Virus record (IMG/VR): IMGVR_UViG_3300050821_001882
Span: 1 to 49,933 of that record
DNA length: 49,933 nucleotides
Source of the DNA: a virus
Strand: one strand, 5' to 3'
Shown: one piece after another, positions 1-49,933 of the stretch
Layout of the letters: the number at the start of each line of letters is the position of its first letter
Numbering within the stretch: the stretch's first letter is position 1
Program-made: the position numbers and the translations under genes
The notes under the pieces: model-generated
Told to the model about the DNA's origin: nothing
Database searches by the model: none
The model's input: the letters and a program-made list of their open reading frames with translations, nothing else

Positions 1-315
1 CTAAGGTTCGCGCCGCTAAGGTTCGCGCCGCTAAGGTTCGCGCCGCTAAGGTTCGCGCCGCTAAGGTTCGCGCCGCTAAGGTTCGCGCCGCTAAGGTACG
101 CGCGGCTAAGGTACGCGCGGCTAAGGTTCGCGCCGCTAAGGTTCGCGCCGCTAAGGTTCGCGCTGTAAAGGTCCGCGCCTCTAAGGTCCGCGCCGCTAAG
201 GTACGCGCGGCTAAGGTACGCGCGGCTAAGGTACGCGCCGCTAAGGTCCGCGCGGCTAAGGTACGCGCGGCTAAGGTCCGCGCGGCTAAGGTCCGCGCCG
301 CTAAGGTCCGCGCGT
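1..315 (-). repeat. 15-base tandem repeat, 21 units (pentapeptide coding)
   Basis: Twenty-one head-to-tail 15-base units with consensus ctaaggttcgcgccg. Variants are limited to a few positions (for example gtccgc, gtacgc, ccg/cgg). Read on the minus strand each unit is exactly five codons giving A-(N/D/Y)-L-S-(G/R), the pentapeptide-repeat signature. The unit length never drifts from 15, so the frame stays open. The same array resumes at the right end of the window. Confidence 0.95.
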
Positions 316-389
316 TTACCCTTCGTGCTATTATCTAACCATTCTTTGTGTTGCTGCAAAATAAATTGTAAATCTATTTTTGAGTCCAT
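1..389 (-). CDS. Pentapeptide-repeat protein, N-terminal part (gene runs off the left end)
   Basis: An ATG at 387-389 preceded by a strong ribosome site (GGAGGGG) opens a frame that stays open to base 1. The first 25 or so residues form a helical leader containing the motif HKEWLDNS, followed by tandem A(N/D/Y)LS(G/R) pentapeptides. Such repeats fold as a right-handed quadrilateral beta-helix. An N-terminal helix followed by pentapeptides and a DUF5758-type C-terminal domain is an architecture I recall from phage and bacterial proteins. The C-terminal part is found at 49403-49933. The function is unknown; some pentapeptide proteins mimic DNA, but nothing here shows that. It lies directly after the 83-residue gene and probably shares its mRNA. 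Confidence 0.85.
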
Positions 390-390
390 A

Positions 391-642
391 TTATTTCCCC
401 TCCGTTTCAAATACTTTAAGCACTCGTTTTGATATGCAAGCAAGACACCCCGAATCCTGGCATATACATTTTGCAATAGACATTTTTTCAATCTGCGCTA
501 ACAAGTTCACGGCGCGGACGATGTAATCGCTCAATTCTTTCGCTTCCGTTTTGTCTTTGACAAAAAAGGCCACAAAAGTATGGCCAGTCCCTGGCATTAC
601 CATTACTTCGGGTGTCGGAGTGTGCTGAGGCTTAGTGTCCAT
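391..642 (-). CDS. Hypothetical protein with Cys cluster
   Basis: 83 residues from ATG at 640-642, chosen because a GGGGGA ribosome site lies just upstream; a longer frame exists but lacks such a site. The C-terminal third carries [11 protein letters not shown], four cysteines that could bind a metal. The middle has two predicted helices ([20 protein letters not shown]). The stop codon is one base from the ATG of the pentapeptide-repeat gene, which argues for one operon. I do not recognise the family. Confidence 0.7.
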
Positions 643-790
643 TATTTCCCCCATTCGTTAACGCAATGATTTCGCGTCTTTCCATGTACCCGTCTTGCGA
701 TATGAGCACAAGACGATTATCCGACAGCTGCTTGATAATGACGGTACGGCCTTGGCGGTCTGTCGCTTGATAGCTCGTTAGGTTTTTCAT
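632..790 (-). CDS. Small hypothetical protein, first gene of a leftward operon
   Basis: 52 residues starting MKNLTSYQAT, ATG at 788-790. The protein is beta-rich (GRTVIIKQLSDNRLVLIS) and has no recognised domain. Its last 11 bases overlap the next gene. The ribosome site is poor, but the start lies immediately downstream of a very good sigma70-type promoter (797-825), so the mRNA would be nearly leaderless. It is the first gene of the leftward transcript that includes the pentapeptide gene. Confidence 0.6.
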   Translation of the reverse strand: MKNLTSYQATDRQGRTVIIKQLSDNRLVLISQDGYMERREIIALTNGGNNGH

Positions 791-796
791 ATTTAG

Positions 797-825
797 AGTA
801 TAGCCCCAATCCCCGAAAAGCGCAA
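797..825 (-). promoter_or_regulatory. Leftward sigma70-type promoter
   Basis: On the minus strand TTGCGC (820-825) and TATACT (797-802) are separated by exactly 17 bases. The spacer ending GGGGATTGGGGC is nearly the same as in a second promoter at 48908-48936. It points at the 52-residue gene. Confidence 0.75.
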
Positions 826-832
826 GGCCCAA

Positions 833-1358
833 TTTTATGGGCTCTCCCGGCGATTCATATTTATTATCAAAACGCGTATATTACGCTATAATTCGCTAGG
901 ATATTCACTTGATAGCGTCTATACCGCTGTCGTACAAAATCCGTGTATTGGCCTCACTAGTGAACGGTAGTAGTGGGGTTTGCGTAGACGCAAGGGTCGT
1001 TAGTTCGTCTGCCTGCAACTGTGGAGTGAACCCCCCGGAGATATCCCCGGCCACCAGACGCGATAGCCTAAATGACTATTCGAAGGTGATTTAATAAACC
1101 TGTCTGAATCAGCTTGTAAGCCTATAGCCGCTAGGCACATAAAACCGGCAAGAGCCAGTCCCGTGGATGTAGCCACAACAAATAGGTGCATGATCGCGCC
1201 GGGTAAAGCTCAAGCGTCCTTATTTCGATCATTTCATATCTAAAAACGATAGTATATAATACTTACAAGCTGAGAGAGTTTAAGAATAGCTTATACACTA
1301 GCTAAATAATCGATATATTGACTTATTAGGCTAATATAACACATTTATTATCGAATAG
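833..1358. other. Divergent non-coding interval (control or origin region candidate)
   Basis: 526 bases between the leftward and rightward blocks with no convincing gene. Frames at 909-1094 (+) and 1000-1191 (-) lack ribosome sites and typical composition. It holds a rightward promoter candidate (864-892) and the 15-mer TTCGCTAGGATATTC (892-906), which recurs with one change at 2905-2919. It also has the inverted repeat TTGCGT-AG-ACGCAA (about 978-991), another TATAAT at 1255-1260, and an AT-rich tail before the first rightward gene. A replication origin or operator function is inferred from position only. Confidence 0.6.
864..892 (+). promoter_or_regulatory. Rightward sigma70-type promoter candidate
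   Basis: TTATCA (864-869), 17-base spacer, then a perfect TATAAT (887-892). The initiation region would fall in the 15-mer that is repeated at 2905-2919. It faces the structural block. Confidence 0.5.
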
Positions 1359-1367
1359 GTGGCGAAA

Positions 1368-1715
1368 ATGGCCGATGTAGAATCTATACAATCTATCGAC
1401 TATACACCCCGTGTCCCAGGCAAACGTTTTGCTAAGAGCACGGGTAGACCTAAAAATAGCGTCAATCTGTATAGCAAGCAACCTAGTTCGATAGCGACTA
1501 GGCTTAAAGCGGCTGGCGTAGACTGGGTTGTTGACCTAGCGGTCGCTATCAAATCGAACAACGAAACACGTATTAACACGTGGTTACGCTTGCTGCCGTA
1601 CTTAATCGTGACACAAGGTCATCGCAAGATTAAGCGGAGTAAAGGCCGAGCAAGCAAAGCTGCGCTCATTGCGCTTGAGGCATTAGAAAGCAAGCCGGAT
1701 AAATCGGGGGAATGA
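1368..1715 (+). CDS. Small basic protein, candidate small terminase subunit
   Basis: 115 residues from ATG 1368, with AGGTGG five bases upstream; a GTG at 1359 in frame lacks a ribosome site. The N-terminal part has KSTGRPKNSVN, similar to the GRPKG segment common near the start of phage terminase-small-like proteins. It is followed by a helical part (WVVDLAVAIKSNNETRINTWLRLL) and a basic stretch (HRKIKRSKGRASK) suited to DNA binding. It is the first rightward gene and lies about 2 kb upstream of terL. The terminase assignment is an inference from position and composition; a general DNA-binding protein is equally possible. Confidence 0.65.
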   Translation: MADVESIQSIDYTPRVPGKRFAKSTGRPKNSVNLYSKQPSSIATRLKAAGVDWVVDLAVAIKSNNETRINTWLRLLPYLIVTQGHRKIKRSKGRASKAALIALEALESKPDKSGE

Positions 1716-2128
1716 TGCTTAGACAGACGTTTAGACAATTATGGGACATGCTACGCGGATGGTTTAATCATGAACCCGTCCATCTAGCGATCGTTCGCCG
1801 CTACCAAGACGCTCAAGGCCATAACGTAGGCGAGCTATACAAGTACGATACATTCGCCGGCGTTGGATGCTATCGCCTCGTAGGATGCTCGCTGGATAGC
1901 TTCCCGCTTGATTTAGGCTCGCTATCGCTAGGCGATGAGCCTGGATCATTAGACTTGTTGCATGACTTCTTAGCCCCGATGGCGGCCAACACGTTCCGCG
2001 TAGGCGCAGCCGAGCCTGAGAACAATGAGAGTGTACGGCGCATGATCGGACGCATACCGCGCAGGAATATACGATTAGTCATACAGAATCGATTTATCGA
2101 ACACGTCCTAGAACGCAAGAATGTGTGA
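1712..2128 (+). CDS. Hypothetical protein
   Basis: 138 residues, overlapping the upstream stop by ATGATG, so translation is probably coupled; GGGGG precedes it. The N-terminus is helical (LRQTFRQLWDMLRGWF), the middle is beta-rich with a predicted fold but no motif I know, and the C-terminus is basic (MIGRIPRRNIRLVIQNRF). No family recognised. Confidence 0.7.
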   Translation: MMLRQTFRQLWDMLRGWFNHEPVHLAIVRRYQDAQGHNVGELYKYDTFAGVGCYRLVGCSLDSFPLDLGSLSLGDEPGSLDLLHDFLAPMAANTFRVGAAEPENNESVRRMIGRIPRRNIRLVIQNRFIEHVLERKNV

Positions 2129-2135
2129 GGGTTGT

Positions 2136-2276
2136 ATGAATGTGTCGGTGCCGCGCCAACCGTTGCCGACTGACGGCAAGCCTGACCCTAATCCTTGCCC
2201 GGTATGTGGAAAGACGGGGCATTATTTTTACGATACATTGCAGCATATTGACGACTTACTGGATGAGGTGCAATGA
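2136..2276 (+). CDS. Zinc-knuckle micro-protein
   Basis: 46 residues. ATG 2136 follows a GAGG ribosome site eight bases after the upstream stop. The core CPVCGKTGH has two Cys and a His in zinc-knuckle spacing, followed by an acidic helix (HIDDLLDEVQ). It ends in an ATGA overlap with the next gene. The function is not known; the small size and metal site suggest a nucleic-acid or protein-binding module. Confidence 0.6.
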   Translation: MNVSVPRQPLPTDGKPDPNPCPVCGKTGHYFYDTLQHIDDLLDEVQ

Positions 2277-2449
2277 CGCTCCGCCACAATCATCGACTTG
2301 CTTTCGTGTGGCATCCAGATTGTCCTAGATGCTTTGTACGTCAATGCTTTGAGCAATGTGACGCTGATATGTTCTCGTTCTATATTCGAAATAACGATTT
2401 GCTTACTTACTGGGAGAAAGCCCAGATATTGGAGAATTATGGACAGTAA
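2273..2449 (+). CDS. Small Cys-rich hypothetical protein
   Basis: 58 residues, coupled to the zinc-knuckle gene by an ATGA overlap. It contains CPRCFVRQCFEQC, a four-cysteine cluster near residues 17-29, then an aromatic and acidic helix. The next gene begins 11 bases before its stop. The overlaps on both sides are the main argument that it is translated. No family recognised. Confidence 0.55.
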   Translation: MTLRHNHRLAFVWHPDCPRCFVRQCFEQCDADMFSFYIRNNDLLTYWEKAQILENYGQ

Positions 2450-2717
2450 TACCTCACGATTGAGCACGACAGATGAACCGCAGCTACTATTAGAGTCTGG
2501 ACCGATGCTCGTTAAAGATTTCAATCCTAAAGGCGTTCTGCGCTTCATGGGTCGTAACTGTGTGAGCTGCGGCGTCTGGATTATGGACCATTGGCTTAGA
2601 CCGAATGACGACCCAGATCTCCGCGGCGAGTATTGGTGCACGAAGGACGGTAACGAGTTTAGTCAAGGCATCAAGGATTGTCAGTACGATGTGCCGGAAG
2701 GGTTTGGTAAGTGTTAA
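2439..2717 (+). CDS. Hypothetical protein with Cys pairs
   Basis: 92 residues from ATG 2439. An in-frame upstream extension would run through two other genes and is unlikely. The residues NCVSCGVW and, later, YWCTKDG and IKDCQ give four cysteines in a spacing compatible with one zinc site. It is acidic and rich in Trp. No family recognised. Confidence 0.6.
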   Translation: MDSNTSRLSTTDEPQLLLESGPMLVKDFNPKGVLRFMGRNCVSCGVWIMDHWLRPNDDPDLRGEYWCTKDGNEFSQGIKDCQYDVPEGFGKC

Positions 2718-2860
2718 ACCTAGTTTCAAGCCTAGCTTCAAACCTAGGTCGCTGTATCAAGCATCATAGGCCGTTGGAGATGGCCCTAGATCGTTGTTTC
2801 TATGTATGTGGCAAAGGATGCGAGATATCATATCGAGAAGTCACTAATCAAGCATCATAA
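2711..2860 (+). CDS. Possible small Cys-containing protein
   Basis: 49 residues from a GTG that overlaps the upstream stop. GGAAGG lies upstream but farther than usual. The C-terminal half has CFYVCGKGCEISY. The coding stretch also contains two 12-base tandem repeats and one copy of a 17-base direct repeat, so this segment may instead be regulatory. Tentative. Confidence 0.35.
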   Translation: MLNLVSSLASNLGRCIKHHRPLEMALDRCFYVCGKGCEISYREVTNQAS

Positions 2861-2996
2861 GCCTAAGTAATTATCCCTTATCGGGTATAACGTACAGTTA
2901 TCCGTTCGTTAGGATATTCTAGAACGAGCATAATGCAGATTTGAGTAACACAACCGTATCGGTACACCCGAACGGGAATAATAATCGGGGGATCAA
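2718..2996 (+). promoter_or_regulatory. Repeat-bearing leader before the terminase genes
   Basis: This interval holds a 12-base tandem repeat (2719-2748, CCTAGYTTCAAR), direct repeats of 17 bases at 2756-2772 and 2847-2863 (ATCAAGCATCATARGCC, one mismatch), and the 15-mer TTCGTTAGGATATTC at 2905-2919 shared with the divergent control region. The position suggests a second regulatory point for late genes. No clear -10/-35 pair with standard spacing was found here. Confidence 0.45.
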
Positions 2997-3347
2997 ATGA
3001 GTGAAACGAATCAAGAAATGCCTCAAGTAACGCCTCAAGTCGCACCTCAAGTCACGCCTAAAGCCGCTATCAAAGACGTAGAAGCCGTCCGCGATCTATT
3101 TGCCAGAGCCCATGATTATATCGCCCAAGCGTCGCATCCTGGTCATCTGGGTATGAAAGTAGCCGAGGTCTTGAACTTCTTGGCGTTTCAGTACAATGAC
3201 TTTAAGCTCCGTGCCGAGAACTTGGCTAAACAAGTCGAAGCCGAGGCTAAGGCCGAATTGAGCAAGGTGGAGGTCGCGGCGGCGCAAACGGCTGTCGAAA
3301 CGACGCTGGTTGAGCCGGAAGTCACATCGGAAGCACCTAAAGCCTGA
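2997..3347 (+). CDS. Hypothetical protein upstream of terminase
   Basis: 116 residues, ATG 2997 with GGGGGA upstream. The first 20 residues repeat PQVTPQVAPQVTP, the middle (residues 25-85) is helical with a coiled-coil-like charge pattern ending in QVEAEAKAELSKVEVAAAQ, and the end is acidic and Pro-rich. The length and helical character would also fit a small terminase or a DNA-packaging accessory protein. No diagnostic motif is visible. Confidence 0.65.
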   Translation: MSETNQEMPQVTPQVAPQVTPKAAIKDVEAVRDLFARAHDYIAQASHPGHLGMKVAEVLNFLAFQYNDFKLRAENLAKQVEAEAKAELSKVEVAAAQTAVETTLVEPEVTSEAPKA

Positions 3348-3496
3348 TGGACCTTAGTAACCATCCTAGATGTGAATGCCACGATTGTACACAGGCGAGA
3401 GCAAGAGAGCTATCGAATCCTTTTGTGAATACGCCGGTACAACCGTGGGTTTGTTGGTGCGGCAAAAACTATCCTCATACCTGTACGTGGTACTAG
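3347..3496 (+). CDS. Cys-rich micro-protein before terL
   Basis: 49 residues, overlapping the upstream stop as TGATG. It contains CECHDC near residue 9 and CWCGKNYPHTC near the end, seven cysteines and two histidines, consistent with a two-half zinc ribbon. It ends three bases before the terL start. The strong Cys/His pattern and the overlap make it a credible gene; the function is unknown. Confidence 0.55.
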   Translation: MDLSNHPRCECHDCTQARARELSNPFVNTPVQPWVCWCGKNYPHTCTWY

Positions 3497-3499
3497 GTT

Positions 3500-4975
3500 G
3501 TGACTGATCAAGAAAAGGCCATAGAAGCCTCTTGGCAAGTAGGGCGGCTGTACGTTCATCTCAATGCCAGCCAACGCAAGATATATGACCAGTTCAAGGC
3601 GAGCATGGGGAAGAACAGTAAATTCGTAGTAAACTGCTCTAGAAAGCTCGGGAAATCCGTACTTGGCCTATTCCTGGGCGTGGAGACATGCATAGCCAAG
3701 CCTAATTCGCTGGTGGCATTCATAGCCCCTACGGTAGACGATGTCCAAGAATATATTAGGCAGCTTTACGAAGTCGTATTCTCGACATGTCCCGAGCATC
3801 TAAAGCCGAAACTACGTAAGACCCGATTGGTGTTCCCTAATGGGTCAAAGATACTCTTCCGAGGCGTCGGCAAGGGTGTGGGAACATCCTACAATAATCT
3901 ACGCTCATTCGCGTTTGATTTGATTATTCTTGATGAAGCCGGGTTTAGTGCCAACCTCGATGAGATAGTCGATGGAGCCCTGGTTTCCACGCTTATACCA
4001 CGCAATGGTAACATGCTTCTGCTGTCCACACCCCCCGTCACGCCGGATCATGCATTTAAGCAGTATTGCGACCAGGCGGAAATAGACGGGGCCTATATGA
4101 AGCTCACCATACGAGACAGTCACTACTCGTTGGAGAGGCAGGAGAAGTTCATTAAAGACCTTGGCGGGATTACTTCCCATAAGGTACGGCGTGAGTTCTT
4201 CTGTGAATTCGTCATTGATACAGACTTCCAGCTATGCCCGGAATGGAAGCCAGAATATGAACGTGAGGTACCTAAACTAGATACCTTCAAGCTTTGGTTC
4301 AAGTATGACGCCCTAGATCAAGGATGGACAGATAATTCAGTCTGCGGGTTTGCTAGTGTCCAATGGGCACCCGGTAAGCCATCTATACTCGTTCTTCATG
4401 ATGAAGTCTGCATGAAATCGCCAGAACAAACGACTGATCTATTGGCGGAGCGGATTATAGCAAAGGAGAAGGAGGTATTTGGAGATGCTGAGATTAAAAA
4501 GCGTATTGCTGACAATAACACACCTTCTCTCTTGCAAGATTTCAATCTTCGCCATCACTTGTACTTTTCGCCCGTAGAGAGCAAGACCTATTTGGACGTG
4601 ATGGTATCAGATGTGCGCGAACTGGTGAAGGAAGGCCGGGTGATCGTTAGTCCGAAGTGCATTCAGACTTTGGGCTGCCTCAAGAACGGCGTTTGGACCA
4701 AGACAAAGGGGGGAGCACGTGGTAAAGAATTTTCTCGATCTAAGACTTTTGGTCACTATGATGGTTTTGCTATGCTCATGTATCTTGTCCGTAGCGTTGA
4801 TTTACTTACTAATCCTCTACCACCGAGCTTCCGTCATAACGAAGAAAATACTTTTATCCCTAAAGCGCTCCTAGAAGGCGACAAAGCGAAGACGGCGGAG
4901 ATTATTTCAGCCGGTATAGACGAAGCAATGAACCAGACGTTCAATGTAAAGGAGCATAATGAAACCTACGACTAG
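3500..4975 (+). CDS. terL: Terminase large subunit (packaging ATPase/nuclease)
   Basis: 491 residues from GTG 3500. It powers DNA packaging into the prohead and cuts the genome. The N-terminal ATPase has a Walker A variant CSRKLGKS (46-53), Walker B with catalytic acid LIILDEAG (141-148), and the coupling motif LLLSTPP (173-179). The C-terminal RNase H-like nuclease shows Asp270 in FKYDALDQGWTDNS, Asp in KRIADNNTPS, and a final Asp in HYDGFAMLMY. The length is typical. The last 17 bases overlap the HNH gene, and portal follows, the usual packaging order. Confidence 0.97.
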   Translation: MTDQEKAIEASWQVGRLYVHLNASQRKIYDQFKASMGKNSKFVVNCSRKLGKSVLGLFLGVETCIAKPNSLVAFIAPTVDDVQEYIRQLYEVVFSTCPEHLKPKLRKTRLVFPNGSKILFRGVGKGVGTSYNNLRSFAFDLIILDEAGFSANLDEIVDGALVSTLIPRNGNMLLLSTPPVTPDHAFKQYCDQAEIDGAYMKLTIRDSHYSLERQEKFIKDLGGITSHKVRREFFCEFVIDTDFQLCPEWKPEYEREVPKLDTFKLWFKYDALDQGWTDNSVCGFASVQWAPGKPSILVLHDEVCMKSPEQTTDLLAERIIAKEKEVFGDAEIKKRIADNNTPSLLQDFNLRHHLYFSPVESKTYLDVMVSDVRELVKEGRVIVSPKCIQTLGCLKNGVWTKTKGGARGKEFSRSKTFGHYDGFAMLMYLVRSVDLLTNPLPPSFRHNEENTFIPKALLEGDKAKTAEIISAGIDEAMNQTFNVKEHNETYD

Positions 4976-5411
4976 CGGCGGGAATAGGACCAACCACCCC
5001 AAAAAAAGATTTTGTGTCCATGCCCACGATACACAACTAGTCGGACGAAATAAATACGGGGATTGTAATGAGTGCATGAGGTTTCGCGGACGGGCTGAGA
5101 ATAGATCTAACCCAGGGGCCTACAGAAAGTATAAGGCTGAGTATCAATGGAAACGCTATGGAATTACCAATAAAGATGGTTCTCCGTTTACTCAGGTAGA
5201 CTACGATAGACAGTACCAGATTCAACAGGGCAAATGTCTTAGTTGTGGTATTCATCAGTCCGAATTAAAGACTGGGTTACACTCTGACCATGACCATCAG
5301 ACTGGTACCTTTCGATTCCTTTTATGTAATAACTGCAATAGAACTTTAGGCCACGCGCAAGACAATCCAGTTATTTTACGGAAACTGGCAGATTTACTAG
5401 AGGGAAAATAA
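4959..5411 (+). CDS. Endonuclease VII-like HNH endonuclease
   Basis: 150 residues. The C-terminal half carries the recombination endonuclease VII (His-Me finger) pattern: GKCLSCGIH, then LHSDHDHQTGTFRFLLCNNCN, with the two Cys pairs binding zinc and the HDH segment catalytic. The N-terminal half has another Cys pair (CNECMRF). T4 endonuclease VII resolves branched DNA before packaging. Here the gene overlaps terL and is followed at once by portal, so either a packaging role or a free-standing homing endonuclease that entered between two essential genes is possible. Confidence 0.85.
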   Translation: MKPTTSGGNRTNHPKKRFCVHAHDTQLVGRNKYGDCNECMRFRGRAENRSNPGAYRKYKAEYQWKRYGITNKDGSPFTQVDYDRQYQIQQGKCLSCGIHQSELKTGLHSDHDHQTGTFRFLLCNNCNRTLGHAQDNPVILRKLADLLEGK

Positions 5412-10479: not shown

Positions 10480-10497
10480 GAAATAGGGAGACAAAAA

Positions 10498-12072
10498 GTG
10501 GCTGATACAGACAAGAGTTTATATAATTTACGCTACAACCAAATTACTAGCAATCTCGAAGCGTTTGGTGGTGGTAGTCCGCAATGGACTCTTATCACTC
10601 TTAATAATGTTGATCCGCAGCAGGTTCCTGTTACGCGCCAGATTAATACGACTACGCCTCTTCAGGGCGGTGGTAATCTTACTGTTGATCGTACTCTATC
10701 TATTCTACAGGCCACAAACGTAGAGGATGGCTATCTTTCTTCGGCGGATTGGAATACTTTCAATAATAAGCAGGCGGCTGGAAACTACATCACCGCTCTA
10801 ACAGGAGACGGAATTGCGAATGGACCGGGATCTGTAGCACTAACATTAGCTACGGTTAATGGAAATGTGGGCACGTTCTCAAACGCATCCATAACTGTAA
10901 ACGCAAAAGGGCTAATCACTTCTGCCGCGAATGGCGCGACGGGAAGTTTAACAGATGTAGGAACAGATGGTATCGTTATTACTGGTGGCACTGGCGCAGT
11001 TTTAGGCTCCGGCACATCTATCGCCCAACACGTAGCCGATACTACGCACAACGGGTATTTAAGTTCAACAGATTGGAACACATTTAACGGGAAGCAATCG
11101 CCCCTGACTTTTGGAAATCTTACAGATGTAGGCACCGATGGAATAACTGTATCAGGCGGCACAGGCGCGGTTATTGGATCAGGCACGTCACTTTCACAGC
11201 ACGTCGCAGACACGACTCACAACGGATACCTCGCTTCTACAGACTGGAACACATTTAATGGTAAACAAGCGGCTGGCAATTATATAACGGCGTTGACTGG
11301 CGATATAACTGCTTCTGGTCCTGGTAGCGCGGCTGCTACTCTCGCCACCGTTAACACAAATGTAGGATCATTCACAAATGCCTCTATTACGGTCAATGGA
11401 AAGGGACTAATTACTGCCGCATCTAACGGTACGTCGGCCGGTACGGTCAATGCAGGTACAGCAACTCATTTAGCCTACTACGCTACTTCAACTAATGCAG
11501 TTAGCGATGCTAATGGTGCAACTGTTTCGGGTACATATACCTTTAGCGGAGCGGTGACGCATAGTGCCACTCTTACAATGTCCGGGGCAACAATCGCTAT
11601 GGGTGCGAATAAAATAACCGGACTAGCAAACGGTAGCGCCTCTTCTGATGCCGCCGCTTTTGGTCAGCTTCCTACATTCACACCGGTAACATCCTTTAGC
11701 CCCACAATAGCTGGCTTTGGGACGCCAACACAGGTTTCATTTTTTTATAGGCAGATGGGCGATGTGGTGGACGTGTGGGGTACGTTTGTCGCCGGTACAG
11801 TATCTGCGACGGTGGCATCTATTACACTGCCAGTTAATATTAATACAGGGCATTTGTCAACCAACTGTGCAAACCTTGGGTATGCAACGGCGTCACACAC
11901 AGAAAATATTCTAGCAAATGACACCGCAGTTATTTTTTATGACGGATCAACCACCGGTAGCGTTTTTATGTGCATGACAGGGACCACTGGTTCGGCGTAT
12001 GCTAAAAATGCCGGAAACGGTATTATGCATTCCAGCGACGTGATGTCTGTCCGCTTTTCGTACCCAGTTTAA
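10498..12072 (+). CDS. Tail fibre or appendage protein with internal repeats
   Basis: 524 residues from GTG 10498 behind GGGAG. The N-terminal 35 residues (MADTDKSLYNLRYNQI, GFGGGSPQW-like) match the start of the protein at 12085, suggesting a common virion-anchoring domain. The shaft has three copies of a unit containing NGYLSSTDWNTFNGKQ and two of VNGKGLITAASNG. Then a module with IAMGANKITGLANG, also present in the protein at 16831, precedes a beta-rich head. Such repeats form trimeric fibres, and the C-terminal head would contact the host surface (inference). Confidence 0.8.
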   Translation: MADTDKSLYNLRYNQITSNLEAFGGGSPQWTLITLNNVDPQQVPVTRQINTTTPLQGGGNLTVDRTLSILQATNVEDGYLSSADWNTFNNKQAAGNYITALTGDGIANGPGSVALTLATVNGNVGTFSNASITVNAKGLITSAANGATGSLTDVGTDGIVITGGTGAVLGSGTSIAQHVADTTHNGYLSSTDWNTFNGKQSPLTFGNLTDVGTDGITVSGGTGAVIGSGTSLSQHVADTTHNGYLASTDWNTFNGKQAAGNYITALTGDITASGPGSAAATLATVNTNVGSFTNASITVNGKGLITAASNGTSAGTVNAGTATHLAYYATSTNAVSDANGATVSGTYTFSGAVTHSATLTMSGATIAMGANKITGLANGSASSDAAAFGQLPTFTPVTSFSPTIAGFGTPTQVSFFYRQMGDVVDVWGTFVAGTVSATVASITLPVNINTGHLSTNCANLGYATASHTENILANDTAVIFYDGSTTGSVFMCMTGTTGSAYAKNAGNGIMHSSDVMSVRFSYPV

Positions 12073-12084
12073 AAGGAGAGTAAA

Positions 12085-12519
12085 ATGGCCGATACAGACA
12101 TTAGTCTATACACTTTACGATATAATCAAGTTACGCAAGGCATGGAGGGTTTTGGTGGTGGTAGTCCTCAGTGGACCCCTCTCGTTATGGTGGCTGATGG
12201 CGGCATTAACCAATTGACCGGTGACGTTACTGCCGGTCCCGGCGTCGGCAGTCAAACAGCTTCGATCTCTGCCGCGACAGTCACAGGTAAGTTATTGACA
12301 GGATATGTATCGGGAGCTGGAACAGTTTCGGCGACCGATTCTATTCTATCGGCTTTTAATAAGTTAAATGGAAACGTTACCGCAGCGACACTCAACACGG
12401 TTTCACGGGTAACCGCCGATCCTGTTTCACCAACAGAAGGAACTGTCTGGTATAACCTAACGACTCATTTGTTGAAATATTATGATGGTACGGCAATTCA
12501 AACAGTCGCTCACGTATAA
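12085..12519 (+). CDS. Short appendage protein sharing the fibre anchor
   Basis: 144 residues, AGGAG upstream. The first 33 residues are nearly those of the 10498 protein (MADTDISLYTLRYNQV), after which it lacks the repeated shaft. The C-terminus has DPVSPTEGTVWYNLTTHL, a short strand-turn element found at the ends of fibre-like proteins. It may be an alternative or accessory appendage occupying the same site as the long fibre. Confidence 0.7.
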   Translation: MADTDISLYTLRYNQVTQGMEGFGGGSPQWTPLVMVADGGINQLTGDVTAGPGVGSQTASISAATVTGKLLTGYVSGAGTVSATDSILSAFNKLNGNVTAATLNTVSRVTADPVSPTEGTVWYNLTTHLLKYYDGTAIQTVAHV

Positions 12520-12531
12520 AGGAGAACGGGG

Positions 12532-12795
12532 ATGAAAACTGAACGCAAAGAAAAGGACGGGAATGTGAAAGCGGAAGGCATTGTTTCTTTAGCCTTTCGT
12601 GTAGTGTATGCGGGGGATGGACTTTATTCGGCGCAAGTTCTCATGTTGCTAGATGATTATGTCGTAGAAAAAAGAACGGGGATCGGTACTACACTAGGAC
12701 ATGCAATCGGCGGAGCCGATGATCTTCTAGATGGTTGGGCTTTTAATGAGATAGAGCAGAAACCGGAAGACTACTTTCGTAACGTGTTTTTATGA
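12532..12795 (+). CDS. Hypothetical protein
   Basis: 87 residues, ATG 12532 with GGAG upstream. Mixed alpha/beta with a hydrophobic middle (FRVVYAGDGLYSAQVLMLL) and an acidic C-terminus. It overlaps the next start by four bases (ATGA). No family recognised; it lies between fibre and scaffold genes. Confidence 0.65.
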   Translation: MKTERKEKDGNVKAEGIVSLAFRVVYAGDGLYSAQVLMLLDDYVVEKRTGIGTTLGHAIGGADDLLDGWAFNEIEQKPEDYFRNVFL

Positions 12796-13058
12796 GAGAG
12801 AATATACCGATGTACTTATTGACCGTTGCTATGCTTGCGGTGGCTGTTTATTTGCGGTCACCGATGACCGCTATAGCAATTGTCGGTCTTTGGACGGTTA
12901 AAGCCTCAGAAGCAGTTTTTACGAGAAAGAATAGAGATGCCGACATTACTGATATGTTAGCAACAATGGCATCGCATAAAGCAAAGATGGACGCGTTAAC
13001 GCGCGATATTACAAACGTGAGTGAACGTGCTCGCGTAATTCTTGGGGAGAACTTCTAA
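12792..13058 (+). CDS. Membrane-anchored coiled-coil protein
   Basis: 88 residues, ATGA overlap with the upstream gene and TAATG with the scaffold gene. Residues 6-38 contain two hydrophobic segments (MYLLTVAMLAVAVYL and MTAIAIVGLWTV), and the rest is a charged helix (MASHKAKMDALTRDI). It could be a lysis-related or head-assembly accessory; its location next to scaffold does not decide. No family recognised. Confidence 0.65.
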   Translation: MRENIPMYLLTVAMLAVAVYLRSPMTAIAIVGLWTVKASEAVFTRKNRDADITDMLATMASHKAKMDALTRDITNVSERARVILGENF

Positions 13059-14041
13059 TGGAAAACGTCACTGCACCAGCCGCACCCGCTGCACCAGTAT
13101 CTAGCGATGCAAGCAAAGCACCCGCCTCTGCGTCTAAAGCCGATAATGCCACTGCACCGAAGGCTAGTGCCTCGCCAGCCGTTAAGGTTGACGAAAATGG
13201 TGTCGGAGAAGCACCAAAGAAAATCTATAAATTAAATGTTAACGGTAAAGAGATGGAATATGACGCCTCTAACGAAGATAAGTTAAAAGCCGATCTTCAG
13301 AAGGTGTTTGGTATCGAAGAGAAGGCCCGTACCACAGCGCAGAAAGTCGATATGGCTGAGAAGCTTATGGGTATGCTTCAATCCGATCCTTTGGGATTCG
13401 AGAAACAATGCAAGTTGAACGGTATTGATGCTACTAAGCTTGCTACCGAGATTCTTTATAATCAGCTCCGTATCCAGAATATGACGCCGGAACAGCGCGA
13501 GCTTGAAGAATATAAAGAGCGCGAAAAAGAAGCCAAGGCCATTAAAGATCAGCAGGAAGCCGAAGCCAAAGTAGCTGAATCAAATAAAAAGACACAAGAA
13601 TGGGCCCAGAAGTTTGAGGCTGAATGCACGGCGGCTTTGAATGCAAATGCTATTCCTAAGACACGATTGAGCTTAGCCCTAATCGCGCAATATATCGACG
13701 CGGGATTGGCTGCGAAAAAAGAATATACCGTAGAACAGGTACTTCCGTATGTCGCGAGAGACTTGAAAGAGATTCATAAATCGACGATGGAAAAATTAGA
13801 CGGCGATGAGCTGTTGGCCTATGTGGGAGAAGCTTTATCGAATAAGATTGCCAAAGCCCGCGTAGACCGCTATAAACGCACCACGGCTAATCCAGTCCCC
13901 GAAAAGAAAACAGTAAACGATAATCCGCAGAATAGAGTGGATATTTCTAAATTGAAAGGCAAAGCATACTGGAAAGCTCTTCGACAACAGAAATCGGAAG
14001 CTGGAATCGGACTACACCCCGGCGCACCGGGTAATTCGTAA
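13058..14041 (+). CDS. Capsid scaffolding protein
   Basis: 327 residues. It is Ala/Pro-rich and disordered at the start (residues 1-55), then mostly helical and highly charged (YKEREKEAKAIKDQQEAEAK), with a basic C-terminal tail (KGKAYWKALRQQK) of the sort that docks on coat subunits. The position just before the major capsid gene is the classic scaffold position in podoviruses. It guides prohead assembly and leaves before DNA packaging (family knowledge). No protease domain is seen. Confidence 0.8.
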   Translation: MENVTAPAAPAAPVSSDASKAPASASKADNATAPKASASPAVKVDENGVGEAPKKIYKLNVNGKEMEYDASNEDKLKADLQKVFGIEEKARTTAQKVDMAEKLMGMLQSDPLGFEKQCKLNGIDATKLATEILYNQLRIQNMTPEQRELEEYKEREKEAKAIKDQQEAEAKVAESNKKTQEWAQKFEAECTAALNANAIPKTRLSLALIAQYIDAGLAAKKEYTVEQVLPYVARDLKEIHKSTMEKLDGDELLAYVGEALSNKIAKARVDRYKRTTANPVPEKKTVNDNPQNRVDISKLKGKAYWKALRQQKSEAGIGLHPGAPGNS

Positions 14042-14046
14042 AATTC

Positions 14047-14120
14047 GCGGGCGGCGGGTCGGCATCCAGCAAGTCTCATAAACTTGTTAAAGTGGGTTCA
14101 ACTCCCACGCTCCGCAACCA
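14047..14120 (+). tRNA. tRNA-Met(CAT)-like element, degenerate
   Basis: The anticodon arm is perfect: CAAGT/ACTTG stem with loop CTCATAA, anticodon CAT at 14077-14079, preceded by T33 and followed by purine 37. The T arm is perfect too: GTGGG/CCCAC with loop TTCAACT, matching the TTCRANY rule. A five-base variable loop lies between. The 3' acceptor strand GCTCCGC is followed by AACCA. The 5' acceptor GCGGGCG pairs only at its first five positions, and the D arm is weak. It is either a divergent functional tRNA or a tRNA-derived remnant. It sits between scaffold and capsid genes. Confidence 0.55.
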
Positions 14121-14123
14121 TAT

Positions 14124-14197
14124 CAGAGAGTAGCTCTAAACCCCAAAGAGTCGCCCGCCCGGCGAGGTTGCAGGTAGTGGTTAATCCTGCCTCTCTG
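14124..14197 (+). ncRNA. Second tRNA-shaped structured element
   Basis: Seven-base-pair closing stem CAGAGAG (14124-14130)/CTCTCTG (14191-14197) encloses 60 bases with three internal hairpins: CTCT/AGAG, TCGCC/GGCGA and GCAGG/CCTGC. The last abuts the closing stem as a T arm would, and bases TA follow the 5' strand as in tRNA positions 8-9. The total is 74 nt, tRNA-sized. It lacks T33, a D-loop GG and a TTC loop, so it is not a standard tRNA. A tRNA mimic, pseudo-tRNA or leader structure for the capsid mRNA are options. Confidence 0.4.
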
Positions 14198-14252
14198 AAC
14201 AATTTATCTACATCCCCAAGCCGTGAGGGAACTAGATTAAGCTGAAACGGCA

Positions 14253-14344
14253 GATGACGATCATCGTACCCTGCAAAAAGAGAGAACTAGGACGCTAATC
14301 CCTATCCGAACACTCGACGAGTAGCTTTGATTGATGACGATCAT
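14253..14344 (+). promoter_or_regulatory. Paired dyad direct repeats upstream of the capsid gene
   Basis: GATGACGATCAT occurs at 14253-14264 and again at 14333-14344, the second 20 bases before the capsid ATG. Each copy has internal dyad symmetry (ATGA-CGA-TCAT). Between them lies another dyad (ACTCG-A-CGAGT). They could be protein-binding sites or RNA hairpins. Confidence 0.35.
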
Positions 14345-14363
14345 GCAGTAAAGGATAATAACC

Positions 14364-15650
14364 ATGTCAGATGTAGATTTATCAGCCCTTAACGGGGACT
14401 TCAAACAAGCTTACCAGGACAAGATCAAAGATCTCGTGCCTAACTATGCTTACATTCTCAAGAATACGAGCGTGGAAAAAGGAATGAAGCAGCTCGGAGA
14501 TAAATTCAACGCTCCCGTGAAAGTGCAATCCGGCCAGGGTTACACGTACAATACCGACGGTTCGGCGTTCGCGTTGAATGCGGCTATTGGGCTTCAGATG
14601 GAAAATGCTCTCGTCCCGGCGTTCAGCCTCATTCGTCGAGACAACATCAGCTATACGGCTATCAGCCGTTCTGCTGGTAAAAACAGCTTCGGAAAAGCTG
14701 TTGACATCACGCTCAACGACATGACCGAAGGCGCGGGCTTCCGCCTCGAAACCACGTACCTTCACGGTACCCGTGGAATCGGTGTAACGTCTGCCGTCAC
14801 CGCTGTTAGCGCGACCCAATCCACCGTTCAGTTGACCGCCGCCTCTTGGGCGACCGGCATCTGGGCTTCTTCGATTGGAGCGCAGGTTCAGTTCTACGTT
14901 GTGGCCGGTGGTGCGCTTGTTTCTTCGGGTGCAGATTCCGTGTTCCAGGTTGTGGGAATGAATTTCACCTCGTTCACCCTCACCGTCAATGGAACGACCA
15001 CGGGCAGCACTGCCTTGGTTGCCGCCACTGCCACACCTCTTAACGTCGCTTTCAATGGCGCGTTCGGAGCTACGTTTGCTCTTCCGATCGAAGGCGTGGG
15101 ACTTATCTCCATCGCTTCCAACTTGGGAACGTTGTTCAGCATCAATTCTGTGACCTGGCCGCTTTGGCAGGGTAACATTTATGACGCGGGCGCGGCTCCT
15201 CTGTCTTTCGGTAAGTTGCAAAAAGCTATCACGCTCCCTGGCGATAAAGGGTTGATGGGCGAAGAATGCACGGTGTTGGTGCCTCTTACTTCTTTCAGCG
15301 ATCTCTTGACCGAACAGGCTGCGGCTCGCCGATATGGCGATGTTAAAGGGAAAAAGATGGACAACGGATGTGATTCGTTGGAATTCTACTCCCCGTCCGG
15401 CACGATGACCATTGTTCCGCACCCGTTGATGAAACGTGGCGAAGCCTTGCTCTATCCGACGGACAGCATCACCCGTATTGGGTCTTCGGAACTAACGTTC
15501 CAATTGCCCGGTACGTCGACGGACAGCTATCTCCAAGTTCCTCTCGGAGACTTCGCTGGCTACCAGGTTCGCATCTGGGCCGACAATACGGTGTTCGCGG
15601 AAACGCCTTCACATATGTGTCTCATCCAGAACATCGTTCCTCGGTCGTAA
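14364..15650 (+). CDS. Major capsid protein (HK97-fold type)
   Basis: 428 residues. It starts with a helical N-arm (NGDFKQAYQDKIKDLVPNYAY), continues with a beta-rich, Ala/Thr/Gly-rich middle (about residues 145-235) that looks like an inserted domain, and returns to a fold with LLTEQAAARRYGDVKGKKM and a C-terminal strand region. The order scaffold-coat, the length and the composition support the call; no sequence motif alone proves it. Codon use is richer in C-ending codons than in neighbouring genes, as expected for the most highly translated gene. The start is preceded by AAAGGATAATAACC. Confidence 0.88.
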   Translation: MSDVDLSALNGDFKQAYQDKIKDLVPNYAYILKNTSVEKGMKQLGDKFNAPVKVQSGQGYTYNTDGSAFALNAAIGLQMENALVPAFSLIRRDNISYTAISRSAGKNSFGKAVDITLNDMTEGAGFRLETTYLHGTRGIGVTSAVTAVSATQSTVQLTAASWATGIWASSIGAQVQFYVVAGGALVSSGADSVFQVVGMNFTSFTLTVNGTTTGSTALVAATATPLNVAFNGAFGATFALPIEGVGLISIASNLGTLFSINSVTWPLWQGNIYDAGAAPLSFGKLQKAITLPGDKGLMGEECTVLVPLTSFSDLLTEQAAARRYGDVKGKKMDNGCDSLEFYSPSGTMTIVPHPLMKRGEALLYPTDSITRIGSSELTFQLPGTSTDSYLQVPLGDFAGYQVRIWADNTVFAETPSHMCLIQNIVPRS

Positions 15651-15659
15651 TCTCACCGT

Positions 15660-15704
15660 CTCAATCTGTGGCTCCTGCCCCCCGACGGGGGCCACAATGT
15701 TGAG
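15660..15704 (+). terminator. Strong hairpin after the capsid gene
   Basis: CTCAA/TTGAG outer pairing (15660-15704), GTGG/CCAC and a CCCCC/GGGGG inner stem around CGAC form a stable hairpin ten bases after the capsid stop. There is no U run behind it, so it may be an attenuator or an mRNA-stabilising structure rather than a full terminator. Confidence 0.6.
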
Positions 15705-15768
15705 ATTCACGCGCAACGCGCTCGCCAGGAAACGAGGGTTGCAAACATCTGTCGTAAAGGAGCTTTAA

Positions 15769-16302
15769 ATGTCAATCACAAACATCGTCATTAACACGGT
15801 GGATACTGCTGCTATGGTCCTAGACCAATTAGACCCGCAACCCAACGCGGATAGTCCGAATTCGCTCGACCGTCTTGCCCGTTACATCGACGGCTTGGCG
15901 AATAGCGCGTTCTATTACAATACGGTGACGGAAGCCATCGGTGCTATTCAGGCCGTCGCTACCTTTACTGTTACTTCTACTGGTCCGACGAATGGGCAGG
16001 TTGGAACACTTGTCAATCAAAACTTGACAGCTGAAACGAGCGGAGCTAATCCGGCCCTCGGTCAGTTTAATATCAATGCCTCTCCTACCATCGTTGCGGC
16101 TAATATGGCTCTGGCGATCAATAGTACCCCTCTTATTGCTGCGCTTGTTACGGCTACGTCGGCTCTCGGCGTTGTCACTATCACGGCGAAACACGCGGGT
16201 ACTGCCGGGAATGGCTTCGAGATTTCTGCCGGAAATCTTTCAAACGTTGCTGCCGGAGCTTTTGCTGGCGGTGGACCTGGCACTTCAGTTGTGCTATCGT
16301 AA
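15769..16302 (+). CDS. Ala/Thr-rich virion protein (decoration candidate)
   Basis: 177 residues, AAAGGAG upstream. The N-terminal third is helical, followed by a beta domain. The segments VTSALGVVTITAKHAGTAGN and FEISAGNLSNV resemble an immunoglobulin-like module of the sort embedded in phage structural proteins. The position directly after the capsid gene suggests a head decoration or minor capsid role (inference). Confidence 0.65.
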   Translation: MSITNIVINTVDTAAMVLDQLDPQPNADSPNSLDRLARYIDGLANSAFYYNTVTEAIGAIQAVATFTVTSTGPTNGQVGTLVNQNLTAETSGANPALGQFNINASPTIVAANMALAINSTPLIAALVTATSALGVVTITAKHAGTAGNGFEISAGNLSNVAAGAFAGGGPGTSVVLS

Positions 16303-16320
16303 TTAAGGAGACTAATTAAC

Positions 16321-16764
16321 ATGAATGATATGTTCGATGAAAAGCGGGGCATGGTTAAAAAGCTCCTAGAGATGCTAAAAAATCATGCATCTGACGAAGT
16401 ATCCGCGGGGCTTCAGCATCCCGAAGGCGAAGGAGACATGCATGGAATTCAGGCCGAAAGAGTTGAGATGGCCGATCATGATATGGATGAGCCTACGCCC
16501 GAGCATGATGTCGTGACCCATGAAATGCATACAGGTGGAGTAGTGGACAAAGTAAGTCCTATTGTTCCCCTTAAGATGGATTCGGAGAAAGGCCAACCGG
16601 ACAAAGATGGCGCGGTGCATAAAGAAGTCGGCGAGGGAATGGAAAAACGCGATGCCCTAACCACCACCGAGCATGAAGAGCCTCTGGACACCGAGTATCC
16701 TGATGCGCATGAGGAACCGGCTTCTATGTTCGCTAGTTTCTTGGGCAAAAAGAAAAAGAAGTAG
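16321..16764 (+). CDS. Acidic His/Met-rich hypothetical protein
   Basis: 147 residues, AAGGAG upstream. The protein is highly acidic with many His and Met (EMADHDMDEPTPEHDVVTHE) and seems largely disordered, apart from a helical start (MVKKLLEMLKNHA). It ends in a run of lysines (GKKKKK). It may bind metal or act as a DNA-mimicking or packaging-linked protein; no evidence decides. Confidence 0.6.
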   Translation: MNDMFDEKRGMVKKLLEMLKNHASDEVSAGLQHPEGEGDMHGIQAERVEMADHDMDEPTPEHDVVTHEMHTGGVVDKVSPIVPLKMDSEKGQPDKDGAVHKEVGEGMEKRDALTTTEHEEPLDTEYPDAHEEPASMFASFLGKKKKK

Positions 16765-16783
16765 TTTAAGTATAGGCGTACCG

Positions 16784-16817
16784 TTGGGGAGTAATCGGAC
16801 AAAACTCCCACAATTTT
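16784..16817 (+). terminator. Rho-independent terminator candidate
   Basis: TTGGGGAGT (16784-16792) and ACTCCCACAA (16804-16813) form a stem with one bulge, followed by TTTT at 16814-16817. It lies between the acidic-protein gene and the next appendage gene and could reduce read-through from the capsid transcript. Confidence 0.5.
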
Positions 16818-16830
16818 AAGGAGAATTACC

Positions 16831-17970
16831 TTGGCTATTCCTCTCTCAATTAATGGATCGGTATTTGAATACCCAGAAAACTTCGACGAAAACTGGGGTG
16901 TTAACGCTACTGGTTGGGCGCAAGCCGTCACAAACGGAATGCTTCAACGAGCAGGTGGAAACTTCCCGCTTCTCGCAGACGTAAATTTTGGTAGCTCTTT
17001 TGGGCTTGTATCGTTATATTATAAATCCCATTCATCCAATATTGCTACGGCAGGTGTTGTCCGTCTTGCAAAAACTGATACCGTAGAATGGCGAAACAAT
17101 GCCAATTCTGCCGATAATATACTCGCCGTTAATTCCATCGATCAATTAACCTACAACGGTACAGTTATCGGCGTAGCTACTGGCGTCACTTCCATTACAG
17201 GTACAGCCAACGAGATTATCGCTAGTTCTTCCACAGGAAATATAACTTTATCAACCCCGCAACCTATTGCCGCCGCATCTACCCCCACATTCGCCAGTCT
17301 GACTTTATCGGGATTAACACCGAATACGGCTCTTACTGCAAACGGATCTAGTGCTATTGCGAGTTCAGTTACAACGGCAACTGAATTAGGTTTCGTAAGC
17401 GGTGTAACTTCGTCGATTCAAACACAAATAAATTCTACTGTAACTGTTGCTAATGCGGCTTTACCCCGAACTGGTGGTACTATGTCTGGTGCCATCGCTA
17501 TGGGTACCAACAAGATTACGGGTCTGGGGAATGGAACAGCGGCGCAAGATGCAGCGGCTTTCGGCCAGATAAAGTTAATTCAATACAAGAGTGTTGCACT
17601 TACCAACCAGTTCGCAACTACATCTACTAGTTTTGTAGATACAAATAGCACGATTAGTATTACCCCTACAAATGCATCAAATACTATTCTTATAATGGCC
17701 TGTGGTGAATTAGGATATAATTCTGCCGGTAATTCCGCTTTTGTAACAGTGGCGAAAAGCGGGACAAATCTTGGTGGTACAGACGGTATTGCAGCCTATA
17801 ACGGTGTTTCAGGAGCCACACCAGTTTCGGTTATGTTCTTTAATACTGCTGGTTCCACTTCACCTATAACATATTCTGTGCAGGTTCGTTCATCTAGTGG
17901 GGCCAATACTGTTACTTGGAATAGAACTAATACGACGGGTACTTTAGCCGTATTTGAATTAGCGAGTTAA
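16831..17970 (+). CDS. Second tail fibre or appendage protein
   Basis: 379 residues from a TTG start, chosen because AAGGAG sits at ideal distance and no ATG is near. The N-terminal domain (SINGSVFEYPENFDENWGVN) differs from the 10498 fibre. The middle carries TSSIQTQINSTVTVANAAL, a coiled-coil-like fibre segment, and then the module MSGAIAMGTNKITGLGNG shared with the 10498 protein. The C-terminus is a Thr/Ser/Asn-rich beta head. It is probably host-contact or head-fibre material. Confidence 0.75.
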   Translation: MAIPLSINGSVFEYPENFDENWGVNATGWAQAVTNGMLQRAGGNFPLLADVNFGSSFGLVSLYYKSHSSNIATAGVVRLAKTDTVEWRNNANSADNILAVNSIDQLTYNGTVIGVATGVTSITGTANEIIASSSTGNITLSTPQPIAAASTPTFASLTLSGLTPNTALTANGSSAIASSVTTATELGFVSGVTSSIQTQINSTVTVANAALPRTGGTMSGAIAMGTNKITGLGNGTAAQDAAAFGQIKLIQYKSVALTNQFATTSTSFVDTNSTISITPTNASNTILIMACGELGYNSAGNSAFVTVAKSGTNLGGTDGIAAYNGVSGATPVSVMFFNTAGSTSPITYSVQVRSSSGANTVTWNRTNTTGTLAVFELAS

Positions 17971-17981
17971 AGGATATAAAT

Positions 17982-18932: not shown

Positions 18933-18937
18933 TCTAA

Positions 18938-22006: not shown

Positions 22007-22016
22007 GAGAAATAAA

Positions 22017-24321: not shown

Positions 24322-24554
24322 TGATCGACATAAAATCGCTGCTTCCTATGGTAGCAAAACTTCTTCCCGGTGTAGCTCCACAGGAGTTGATAGCCGGAAT
24401 TCAGCAGTTCGCTAAAACTCATCCGAATTTAAACAATCAACAGGCTCTCCAAGCCTTGATGCAGTATCTACAGACTCAAAAACAAGCCCCGCAGCAAGCA
24501 ACCCCATCTGCGCCGCCGTTCCAGAATCTTATATCTCAATTAGGAGCCCGCTAA
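24321..24554 (+). CDS. Small helical Gln/Pro-rich protein
   Basis: 77 residues, GAGGATATA upstream and a one-base overlap with the GNAT gene. Helical N-terminal 55 residues (LLPMVAKLLPGVAPQELIAG) and a Gln/Ala/Pro-rich end. It is probably virion or ejection associated because of its place in the block. No family recognised. Confidence 0.65.
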   Translation: MIDIKSLLPMVAKLLPGVAPQELIAGIQQFAKTHPNLNNQQALQALMQYLQTQKQAPQQATPSAPPFQNLISQLGAR

Positions 24555-24555
24555 A

Positions 24556-25848: not shown

Positions 25849-25850
25849 CA

Positions 25851-27980: not shown

Positions 27981-27989
27981 GATATAAAA

Positions 27990-48953: not shown

Positions 48954-49388
48954 TCACCATAGCCCGACAATAGATGGTGAAGCTGAGCGCGTAAACGTCC
49001 CGTGTCCGCTAATGCCACCATTCACTACCGTTGCACTCATAGACGTACCAGTCACATTGACACTGACGACTAACCCAACCGGCGTAAACGAGAGACTACC
49101 GCGGAAAGTATGATTCTGAACATTGCCAGTCACCGTACCAGATCCTCCGGTTGAATCCGCATACGTACCCGTGACGCCTAGCCCGTCTTGTGATAGCACC
49201 ATTGACATATTCCCGGTGACGGTGACACTGGTGACAGGACCGCCGGTAACGGGATAGGTGTATGTGAACGGTCCTACCCATGTGCCGGCCACATTCGCCG
49301 TATCTGGCGGCGGGGGGGGGCTATCACTCTTTTTCTTGCATCCAACGGCCAACAGACCGCACGTTATCGCTACAATAATTCTTTTCAT
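48954..49388 (-). CDS. Lipoprotein with beta-sandwich domain
   Basis: 144 residues from ATG 49388 behind AAAGGAGATATT. The signal peptide ends in LLAVGC, a lipobox, with Cys as the lipid anchor, then KKKSDSPPPPPDT as linker. The remaining 110 residues are Thr/Val/Gly-rich beta strands (VTSVTVTGNMSMVLSQDG, FRGSLSFTPVGLVV). It is likely attached to the outer membrane or inner membrane; phage lipoproteins sometimes block superinfection (inference). Located after the pentapeptide gene in the same direction. Confidence 0.75.
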   Translation of the reverse strand: MKRIIVAITCGLLAVGCKKKSDSPPPPPDTANVAGTWVGPFTYTYPVTGGPVTSVTVTGNMSMVLSQDGLGVTGTYADSTGGSGTVTGNVQNHTFRGSLSFTPVGLVVSVNVTGTSMSATVVNGGISGHGTFTRSASPSIVGLW

Positions 49389-49402
49389 AATATCTCCTTT
49401 GA

Positions 49403-49933
49403 TTAACCGTTCCAGCGTTCGGCTTCTTGTCTTGTGATGAAGAAATGAATCCCGTGTGAGCATTCGTTTAATGGCGATGGATCATAGCTATCAGGTCTTA
49501 CAGTCTTTCCGACGGTGTATATGAGGTTAGGATCACACAATCCGGTAGTAGTTTTCATCGTCGACCCATCAATTTTAGAATGAATGGCTATGACTTTAGC
49601 ATATTCCGCACGGCATTTTTGTGAGCCGATATAATTTACTCTTGCAGCTTTCGCGGGAATTTGCAAGGTTACTATACTATCTTTGGCGGCCTTATATACG
49701 GTCAAAGTGCCTGATGGAAGTAACGAAGTAAATGATAGAATATAATCAATAGTTTTTTGGTTCGCGCCGCTAAGGTCCGCGCCGCTAAGGTCCGCGCCTC
49801 TAAGGTCCGCGCCTCTAAGGTTCGCGCCGCTAAGGTCCGCGCCTCTAAGGTTCGCGCCGCTAAGGTTCGCGCCGCTAAGGTTCGCGCCGCTAAGGTTCGC
49901 GCCGCTAAGGTTCGCGCCGCTAAGATACGCGCA
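49403..49933 (-). CDS. Pentapeptide-repeat protein, C-terminal part (gene runs off the right end)
   Basis: The frame is open from base 49933 down to the stop at 49403. It starts in pentapeptide repeats, then a linker (residues encoded at about 49705-49757), then a C-terminal domain: [33 protein letters not shown] and [17 protein letters not shown]. This resembles the DUF5758 domain that commonly ends pentapeptide proteins. With the left part (1-389) the gene is about 307 codons; the exact repeat number at the cut is uncertain. Confidence 0.85.
49770..49933 (-). repeat. 15-base tandem repeat, right part of the array
   Basis: Ten complete 15-base units and a last one of 14 bases at the window edge, of the same consensus as at 1-315, plus a partial unit just before 49770. 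It encodes the last pentapeptides of the protein whose C-terminal domain follows. The array is cut by the window edge. Confidence 0.95.

What the first reader, a model, noticed from the sequence alone, without database searches (positions are those of the whole stretch)
1..389. The terminal repeats are one gene cut by the window edge
Fifteen-base tandem units at both ends read, on the minus strand, as A(N/D)LS(G) pentapeptides. The left end supplies the start codon, ribosome site and N-terminal helix; the right end supplies repeats plus a C-terminal DUF5758-type domain. Standard gene calling on the linear sequence would miss both halves and could report terminal repeats instead.
Basis: seen in the sequence. 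Interest (0 to 1): 0.75.

Follow-up and report, generated by a model that had tools for sequence, protein, structure and literature searches.

The report
Phage repeat gene split by assembly
The matching repeats at the two ends of this phage sequence are the two halves of one ordinary phage protein gene, cut open where the genome assembly broke inside its repeats, so the "linear" record is probably a nearly complete genome that maps as a circle.

Summary
Confirmed, with corrections. The window is a 49,933-base phage contig that IMG/VR classes as linear. Its left end (minus strand) holds a start codon, an N-terminal helix and 21 pentapeptide units. Its right end holds 12 more units and a DUF5758 domain (Pfam E=2.7e-22). 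Relatives with 88-90% identical terminase run from the right-end genes to the left-end genes inside single contigs, so the two ends are neighbours. Joined end to end, the halves are out of frame, because the right-hand tip is 14 rather than 15 bases. Overlapped by 104 nt (4 mismatches, all in the tip units), they give one open frame of 271 codons with 25-26 pentapeptides. An independent 5,093-base contig (99.94% identical) supports this: its own tip matches the right end with 2 mismatches in 103.

The break is an assembly artefact that recurs. Fifteen of 88 pentapeptide contigs end inside the array, against about 2.4 expected by chance; at least three others show near-exact, unflagged end overlaps. 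The gene is a new member of a known kind: 147 isolate-phage records carry a DUF5758 relative, and one checked has it fused to pentapeptides in an intact gene. The protein's function is unproven.

The parts
315..389 (-). Start codon and N-terminal segment [25 protein letters not shown], with GGAGG ribosome site just upstream
   Evidence: Translation; the same kind of N-terminus (..LxxHxxWL..) in intact homologues L006, L009, L011, L015; 100% identical in L033
1..314 (-). Left part of the pentapeptide array: 21 units of 15 bp, codons A(D/N/Y)L(S/R/Y)(G/R/S)
   Evidence: TRF, translation, Pfam PF00805 E=2.1e-41
49757..49933 (-). Right part of the same array: about 12 units; the last unit (49920-49933) is a 14-base contig tip
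   Evidence: TRF, translation, Pfam PF00805 E=8.2e-30
49403..49756 (-). C-terminal DUF5758 domain and stop codon
   Evidence: Pfam PF19062 E=2.7e-22, 79 bits against cut-off 26.9; motif [10 protein letters not shown] invariant in 30 aligned sequences
49830..49933 (.). Inferred terminal overlap with window 1-104 (4 mismatches, all in the two tip units)
   Evidence: best of 15 registers; 2 mismatches in 103 against the independent contig L033
391..654 (-). Gene upstream of the pentapeptide gene (87 aa, no family); a homologue in L100 lies among right-end homologues, a further tie between the two window ends
48954..49463 (-). Next gene downstream of the pentapeptide gene in the same minus-strand series (169 aa, lipoprotein-like start, no Pfam family)

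Best explanation
The window is a nearly complete tailed-phage genome that maps as a circle of about 49.83 kb. The assembler broke it inside the 15-bp array of one minus-strand gene. That gene encodes a roughly 271-residue protein: a short N-terminal helix, a right-handed beta-helix of 25-26 pentapeptides and a C-terminal DUF5758 domain. The contig ends overlap by 104 nt in the array but differ in their tip units, so a search for exact terminal repeats missed the circularity. Shown: the two halves, the neighbourhood in relatives, and one open frame under the overlap. Inferred: the exact repeat number and the cause of the tip differences. Function, inferred only (about 0.25 for this reading): an accessory protein of the leftward gene set in which the rigid repeat rod carries and positions the conserved DUF5758 module on a partner.
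For: Halves and domains. One frame under the overlap. Independent contig L033/L096 equals window 2-5094 with the bridging tip (99.94% over the 3,388 bases compared). Right-end and left-end homologues contiguous in L100, L102, L105 and L108. L108's 49,991-base contig opens elsewhere (window 33.2-33.5 kb equivalent) and so is a circular permutation. Intact homologues. Recurrent breakage in such arrays: 15 of 88 contigs against 2.35 expected, 9 of 64 against 1.0 for contigs of at least 20 kb (Poisson 3e-8 and 1e-6). Both-end arrays on one strand in six other contigs, three of them with 76, 98 and 145-nt near-exact overlaps. [quoted passage not shown]
Against: The overlap alone is not very specific: 3 of 105 in-register 104-nt pairs inside the left array match equally well, and an 89-nt register has 3 mismatches. 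L033 ends one base from the window's own left end, so two contigs stop at nearly the same place; a shared assembly branch point explains this, but it was not tested. No relative with the same DUF5758 gene shows it intact at this exact locus. L102 has a pentapeptide gene there, without DUF5758; L105 and L108 have none.
Confidence: 0.93

Rival explanations
1. Same split gene, but the true array is longer than the 104-nt overlap model: the right-hand tip (CAYL, TAT codon) and the left-hand sixth ANL unit are real, and further units lie between them.
For: Both tips differ from the other copy. The assembler broke although the longest exact repeat in the 271-codon model is only 67 nt, which is short for a large-k assembly.
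Against: L033 has exactly five ANLSG-type units between AYL and RGADL, as the right end does, and fits with 2 mismatches in 103. Mismatches sit only in tip units.
Confidence: 0.3
2. True physical ends: a linear genome with terminal tandem repeats, or a fixed cos or pac end lying in the array.
For: Repeats are at both ends in direct orientation, and L033 ends within one base of the window's left end.
Against: Right-end and left-end genes are contiguous in four relatives. L108's contig opens elsewhere. The repeats are codons of a known domain architecture. Similar arrays break the contigs of other phages.
Confidence: 0.03
3. Two separate genes, an N-terminal pentapeptide gene and another pentapeptide-DUF5758 gene, with missing DNA between the contig ends.
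For: The ends were not closed by the assembler. One both-end contig (G008) does not form a clean single gene.
Against: Each half lacks what the other has, and together they equal intact homologues in length and domain order. The distance between flanking homologues in L105 (window 48.9 kb to about 3.07 kb) is 3.2 kb there against 4.1 kb in the joined window, so no large piece appears to be missing.
Confidence: 0.04

Closest known systems
Pentapeptide-DUF5758 proteins of Kostyavirus mycobacteriophages (e.g. NoSleep gp60, KT020852.1)
   Same: Same order: short N-terminus, pentapeptide solenoid, DUF5758 C-terminus; about the same size (279 aa against 271); conserved C-terminal motif [12 protein letters not shown]
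   Different: DUF5758 only 45-48% identical; NoSleep's repeats are far more diverged, the window's are nearly identical at DNA level; unrelated phage and different gene neighbours
DUF5758 proteins of uncultivated phages in IMG/VR (L003-L031)
   Same: Both domains, up to 53% identity to the window's right half; several share the ..LxxHxxWL.. N-terminus
   Different: Other phages; a second N-terminal type (KIEIKNRWTGxxLFEYE..) is common among them
MfpA / Qnr gyrase-binding pentapeptide proteins
   Same: Pentapeptide fold: profile hit to MfpA 2bm4 E=2e-16; Foldseek places MfpA chains among the best matches
   Different: These lack DUF5758; the window's array has 10 Asp, 11 Arg and no Glu or Lys, so it is not acidic
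Giant-virus DUF5758-like proteins with MORN or RING domains
   Same: The fold search matches the model at E about 1e-8, TM-score 0.5
   Different: The domain is joined to other repeats or domains; function unknown there too

Membership tests
Pentapeptide repeat proteins (PF00805) | Tandem A(D/N)LXX units above the Pfam cut-off | tested here: met
   139.5 and 102.4 bits against cut-off 20.2
Pentapeptide repeat proteins (PF00805) | Right-handed beta-helix fold | tested here: met
   AlphaFold2 model, mean pLDDT 87.5, one strand every 5 residues; best PDB matches are pentapeptide proteins, though at E=2.5e-3. Prediction only, right half only
DUF5758 (PF19062) | Domain above the Pfam cut-off over most of its length | tested here: met
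   79.1 bits against 26.9, profile positions 9-105 of 105
Pentapeptide-DUF5758 phage proteins | Both domains in one open frame | tested here: met
   Right half alone has 12 units and DUF5758 in one frame. With the start codon and left half it is met under the 104-nt overlap; a butt join fails. No read across the junction
MfpA/Qnr gyrase modulators | Acidic DNA-mimicking surface | tested here: not met
   Array has 10 Asp, 11 Arg, 0 Glu, 0 Lys; sequence count only, no surface calculation
MfpA/Qnr gyrase modulators | Binding to DNA gyrase | not testable with these tools
   Needs biochemistry
Direct-terminal-repeat (closed) viral contig in CheckV's sense | The same sequence of at least 20 bp at contig start and end | tested here: not met
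   Best end overlaps 89 nt with 3 mismatches or 104 nt with 4; IMG/VR classes the record linear

The most novel reading that the evidence does not exclude
Near-identical pentapeptide arrays are a hypervariable, slippage-prone part of many phage genomes. The array length differs between strains (six against five ANLSG units in the window's left end and L033), giving a tunable beta-helix that positions the DUF5758 module. The same property breaks assemblies, so a class of complete phage genomes is filed as linear fragments.
Probability: 0.25. Interest if true: 0.5.

Novelty: new member of a known kind. Interest (0 to 1): 0.3.

Why it matters
It turns an apparent terminal-repeat phage fragment into a nearly complete genome that maps as a circle, and recovers a gene lost at the break. 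The same break recurs: 15 of 88 pentapeptide contigs end in the array, and at least three have unflagged end overlaps. An inexact, codon-register-aware end test could therefore rescue complete genomes now classed as linear. DUF5758 has invariant residues ([13 protein letters not shown]), no solved relative was found, and no paper in the library names it, so its role is an open question.

Tried and rejected
Butt join of the two ends: frameshifted by one base, so replaced by the overlap model. True terminal repeats: rejected on synteny. DNA mimicry of the MfpA/Qnr kind: no support, since the array is charge-neutral. Finding a solved relative of DUF5758: the profile search and Foldseek hit only the repeat part. 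I wondered whether GIHFF resembles the PARP-type ADP-ribosyltransferase signature; the PDB fold search gave no such match, so I dropped it. Host by terminase: no relative in genome contigs, only 24-29% matches among isolate phages. No near DNA match among isolate phages. No RNA families. No paper names DUF5758. A Pfam search for DUF5758 in five relatives rang nowhere, controls included, so it says little.

Full report
The observation. Tandem Repeats Finder reports period-15 arrays at 1-313 and 49759-49932. On the minus strand both read as pentapeptides A(D/N/Y)L(S/R/Y)(G/R/S). Across 31 full units the Ala and Leu codons never change, and nearly all variation is at the D/N/Y codon and the two variable residues, as expected of a coding array. 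The left half carries ATG at 389..387, a GGAGG ribosome site and [26 protein letters not shown]; the right half carries DUF5758 (PF19062, E=2.7e-22) and a stop at 49403. The window is a whole IMG/VR record of 49,933 bases classed as linear.

The join. A plain end-to-end join is out of frame because the right-hand tip unit has 14 bases. The best in-register overlap reaching the tips is 104 nt with 4 mismatches, at overlap offsets 7, 14, 95 and 103 (from 0), that is, only in the tip units. An 89-nt register with 3 mismatches is nearly as good, so the overlap alone is not decisive; 3 of 105 internal in-register pairs match as well. An independent contig, IMGVR_UViG_3300021404_000363 (L033/L096, 5,093 bases), spans the same DNA as window 2-5094. 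Over the 3,388 bases compared it is 99.94% identical, and its only two differences lie in its terminal unit. That unit (RGADL) fits the right half: its tip matches the window's right end at 101 of 103 bases. Joined through it, the gene is one open frame of 271 codons with 25 AxL units plus ANQ. The true number of units needs reads.

Neighbourhood. Terminase relatives at 88-90% identity carry homologues of window genes from about 42-49 kb and, further along the same contig and in order, homologues of genes at 1.4-5 kb (L100, L102, L105, L108). L108's contig, 49,991 bases, starts and ends inside the homologue of the window's 33.2-33.5 kb gene, so it is a circular permutation of the window. The two window ends therefore adjoin. 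L102 has a 166-aa pentapeptide gene at the same place, without DUF5758. L105 and L108 have none there: the gene is accessory.

Why the contig broke there. Among 88 IMG/VR contigs carrying such arrays, 15 end inside the array against 2.35 expected from array and contig lengths; for contigs of at least 20 kb it is 9 of 64 against 1.0 (Poisson 3e-8 and 1e-6). Of ten such contigs examined, six have arrays at both ends on the same strand. Three of these (G001, G009, G016) hold N-terminal and C-terminal halves with end overlaps of 76, 98 and 145 nt and only 1, 1 and 4 mismatches; G011 and G013 hold halves without a clean overlap; G008 is unclear. Published simulations report that repeats within a genome fragment short-read assemblies (COBRA, PMC10914622). 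CheckV calls closed genomes from a repeated sequence of at least 20 bp at start and end (PMC8116208). Inexact overlaps such as these would be missed. That the tip differences are assembly errors rather than strain variants is my inference.

What the gene is. Intact proteins with both domains occur in other IMG/VR phages, and 147 isolate-phage records carry a DUF5758 relative, 144 of them mycobacteriophages. NoSleep gp60 (KT020852.1) is an intact example, near the immunity repressor and integrase. In the alignment of 30 sequences KCR and [10 protein letters not shown] are invariant. The predicted structure of the right half is good (mean pLDDT 87.5, pTM 0.65). Its repeat part matches pentapeptide proteins in the PDB. 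The DUF5758 part has no match there, but it does match giant-virus proteins, many named as MORN-repeat proteins.

How it may work. Pentapeptide proteins form rigid beta-helices, and some (Qnr, MfpA) act on gyrase through a DNA-like shape (PMC10886550). This array has 10 Asp, 11 Arg and no Glu or Lys, which does not support mimicry by charge. The best reading is a rigid spacer or docking rod carrying the conserved DUF5758 module, made with the leftward genes that include replication functions. Confidence in that function is about 0.25. The split-gene conclusion itself is firm, at about 0.93.

The phage. Terminase and a P22/SPP1-type portal are recognisable, but no isolate phage is close: terminase 24-29%, no DNA match. 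No host could be assigned.

Noticed in passing
G001 (IMGVR_UViG_3300044822_000145), G009 (IMGVR_UViG_3300033416_000003), G016 (IMGVR_UViG_3300028591_000320): Other 'linear' IMG/VR contigs of 51.8, 67.7 and 48.5 kb with a pentapeptide gene split over both ends and near-exact end overlaps of 76, 98 and 145 nt: probably complete genomes.
   Followed up: partly
window 10487-11423 against L098 and L108: This structural-gene stretch matches several places in each relative, which suggests duplicated or paralogous structural genes there.
   Followed up: no
window 41629-42735 (-), 36829-37662 (-), 31258-31983 (-): RNA ligase, C5 cytosine methylase and a trypsin-like protease in the leftward gene set.
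   Followed up: no
window 48599-49021 (-) and L100 5444-7254: L100 carries two homologues of the window's 140-aa gene and, beside them, a homologue of the left-end gene 391-654: a shuffled accessory region around the junction.
   Followed up: partly
window 14047-14116 (+): A single tRNA-Met(cat) gene between structural genes.
   Followed up: no
window 10498-28000 (+): Several large late-region ORFs gave no Pfam or PHROG match: the phage lineage is poorly sampled.
   Followed up: no
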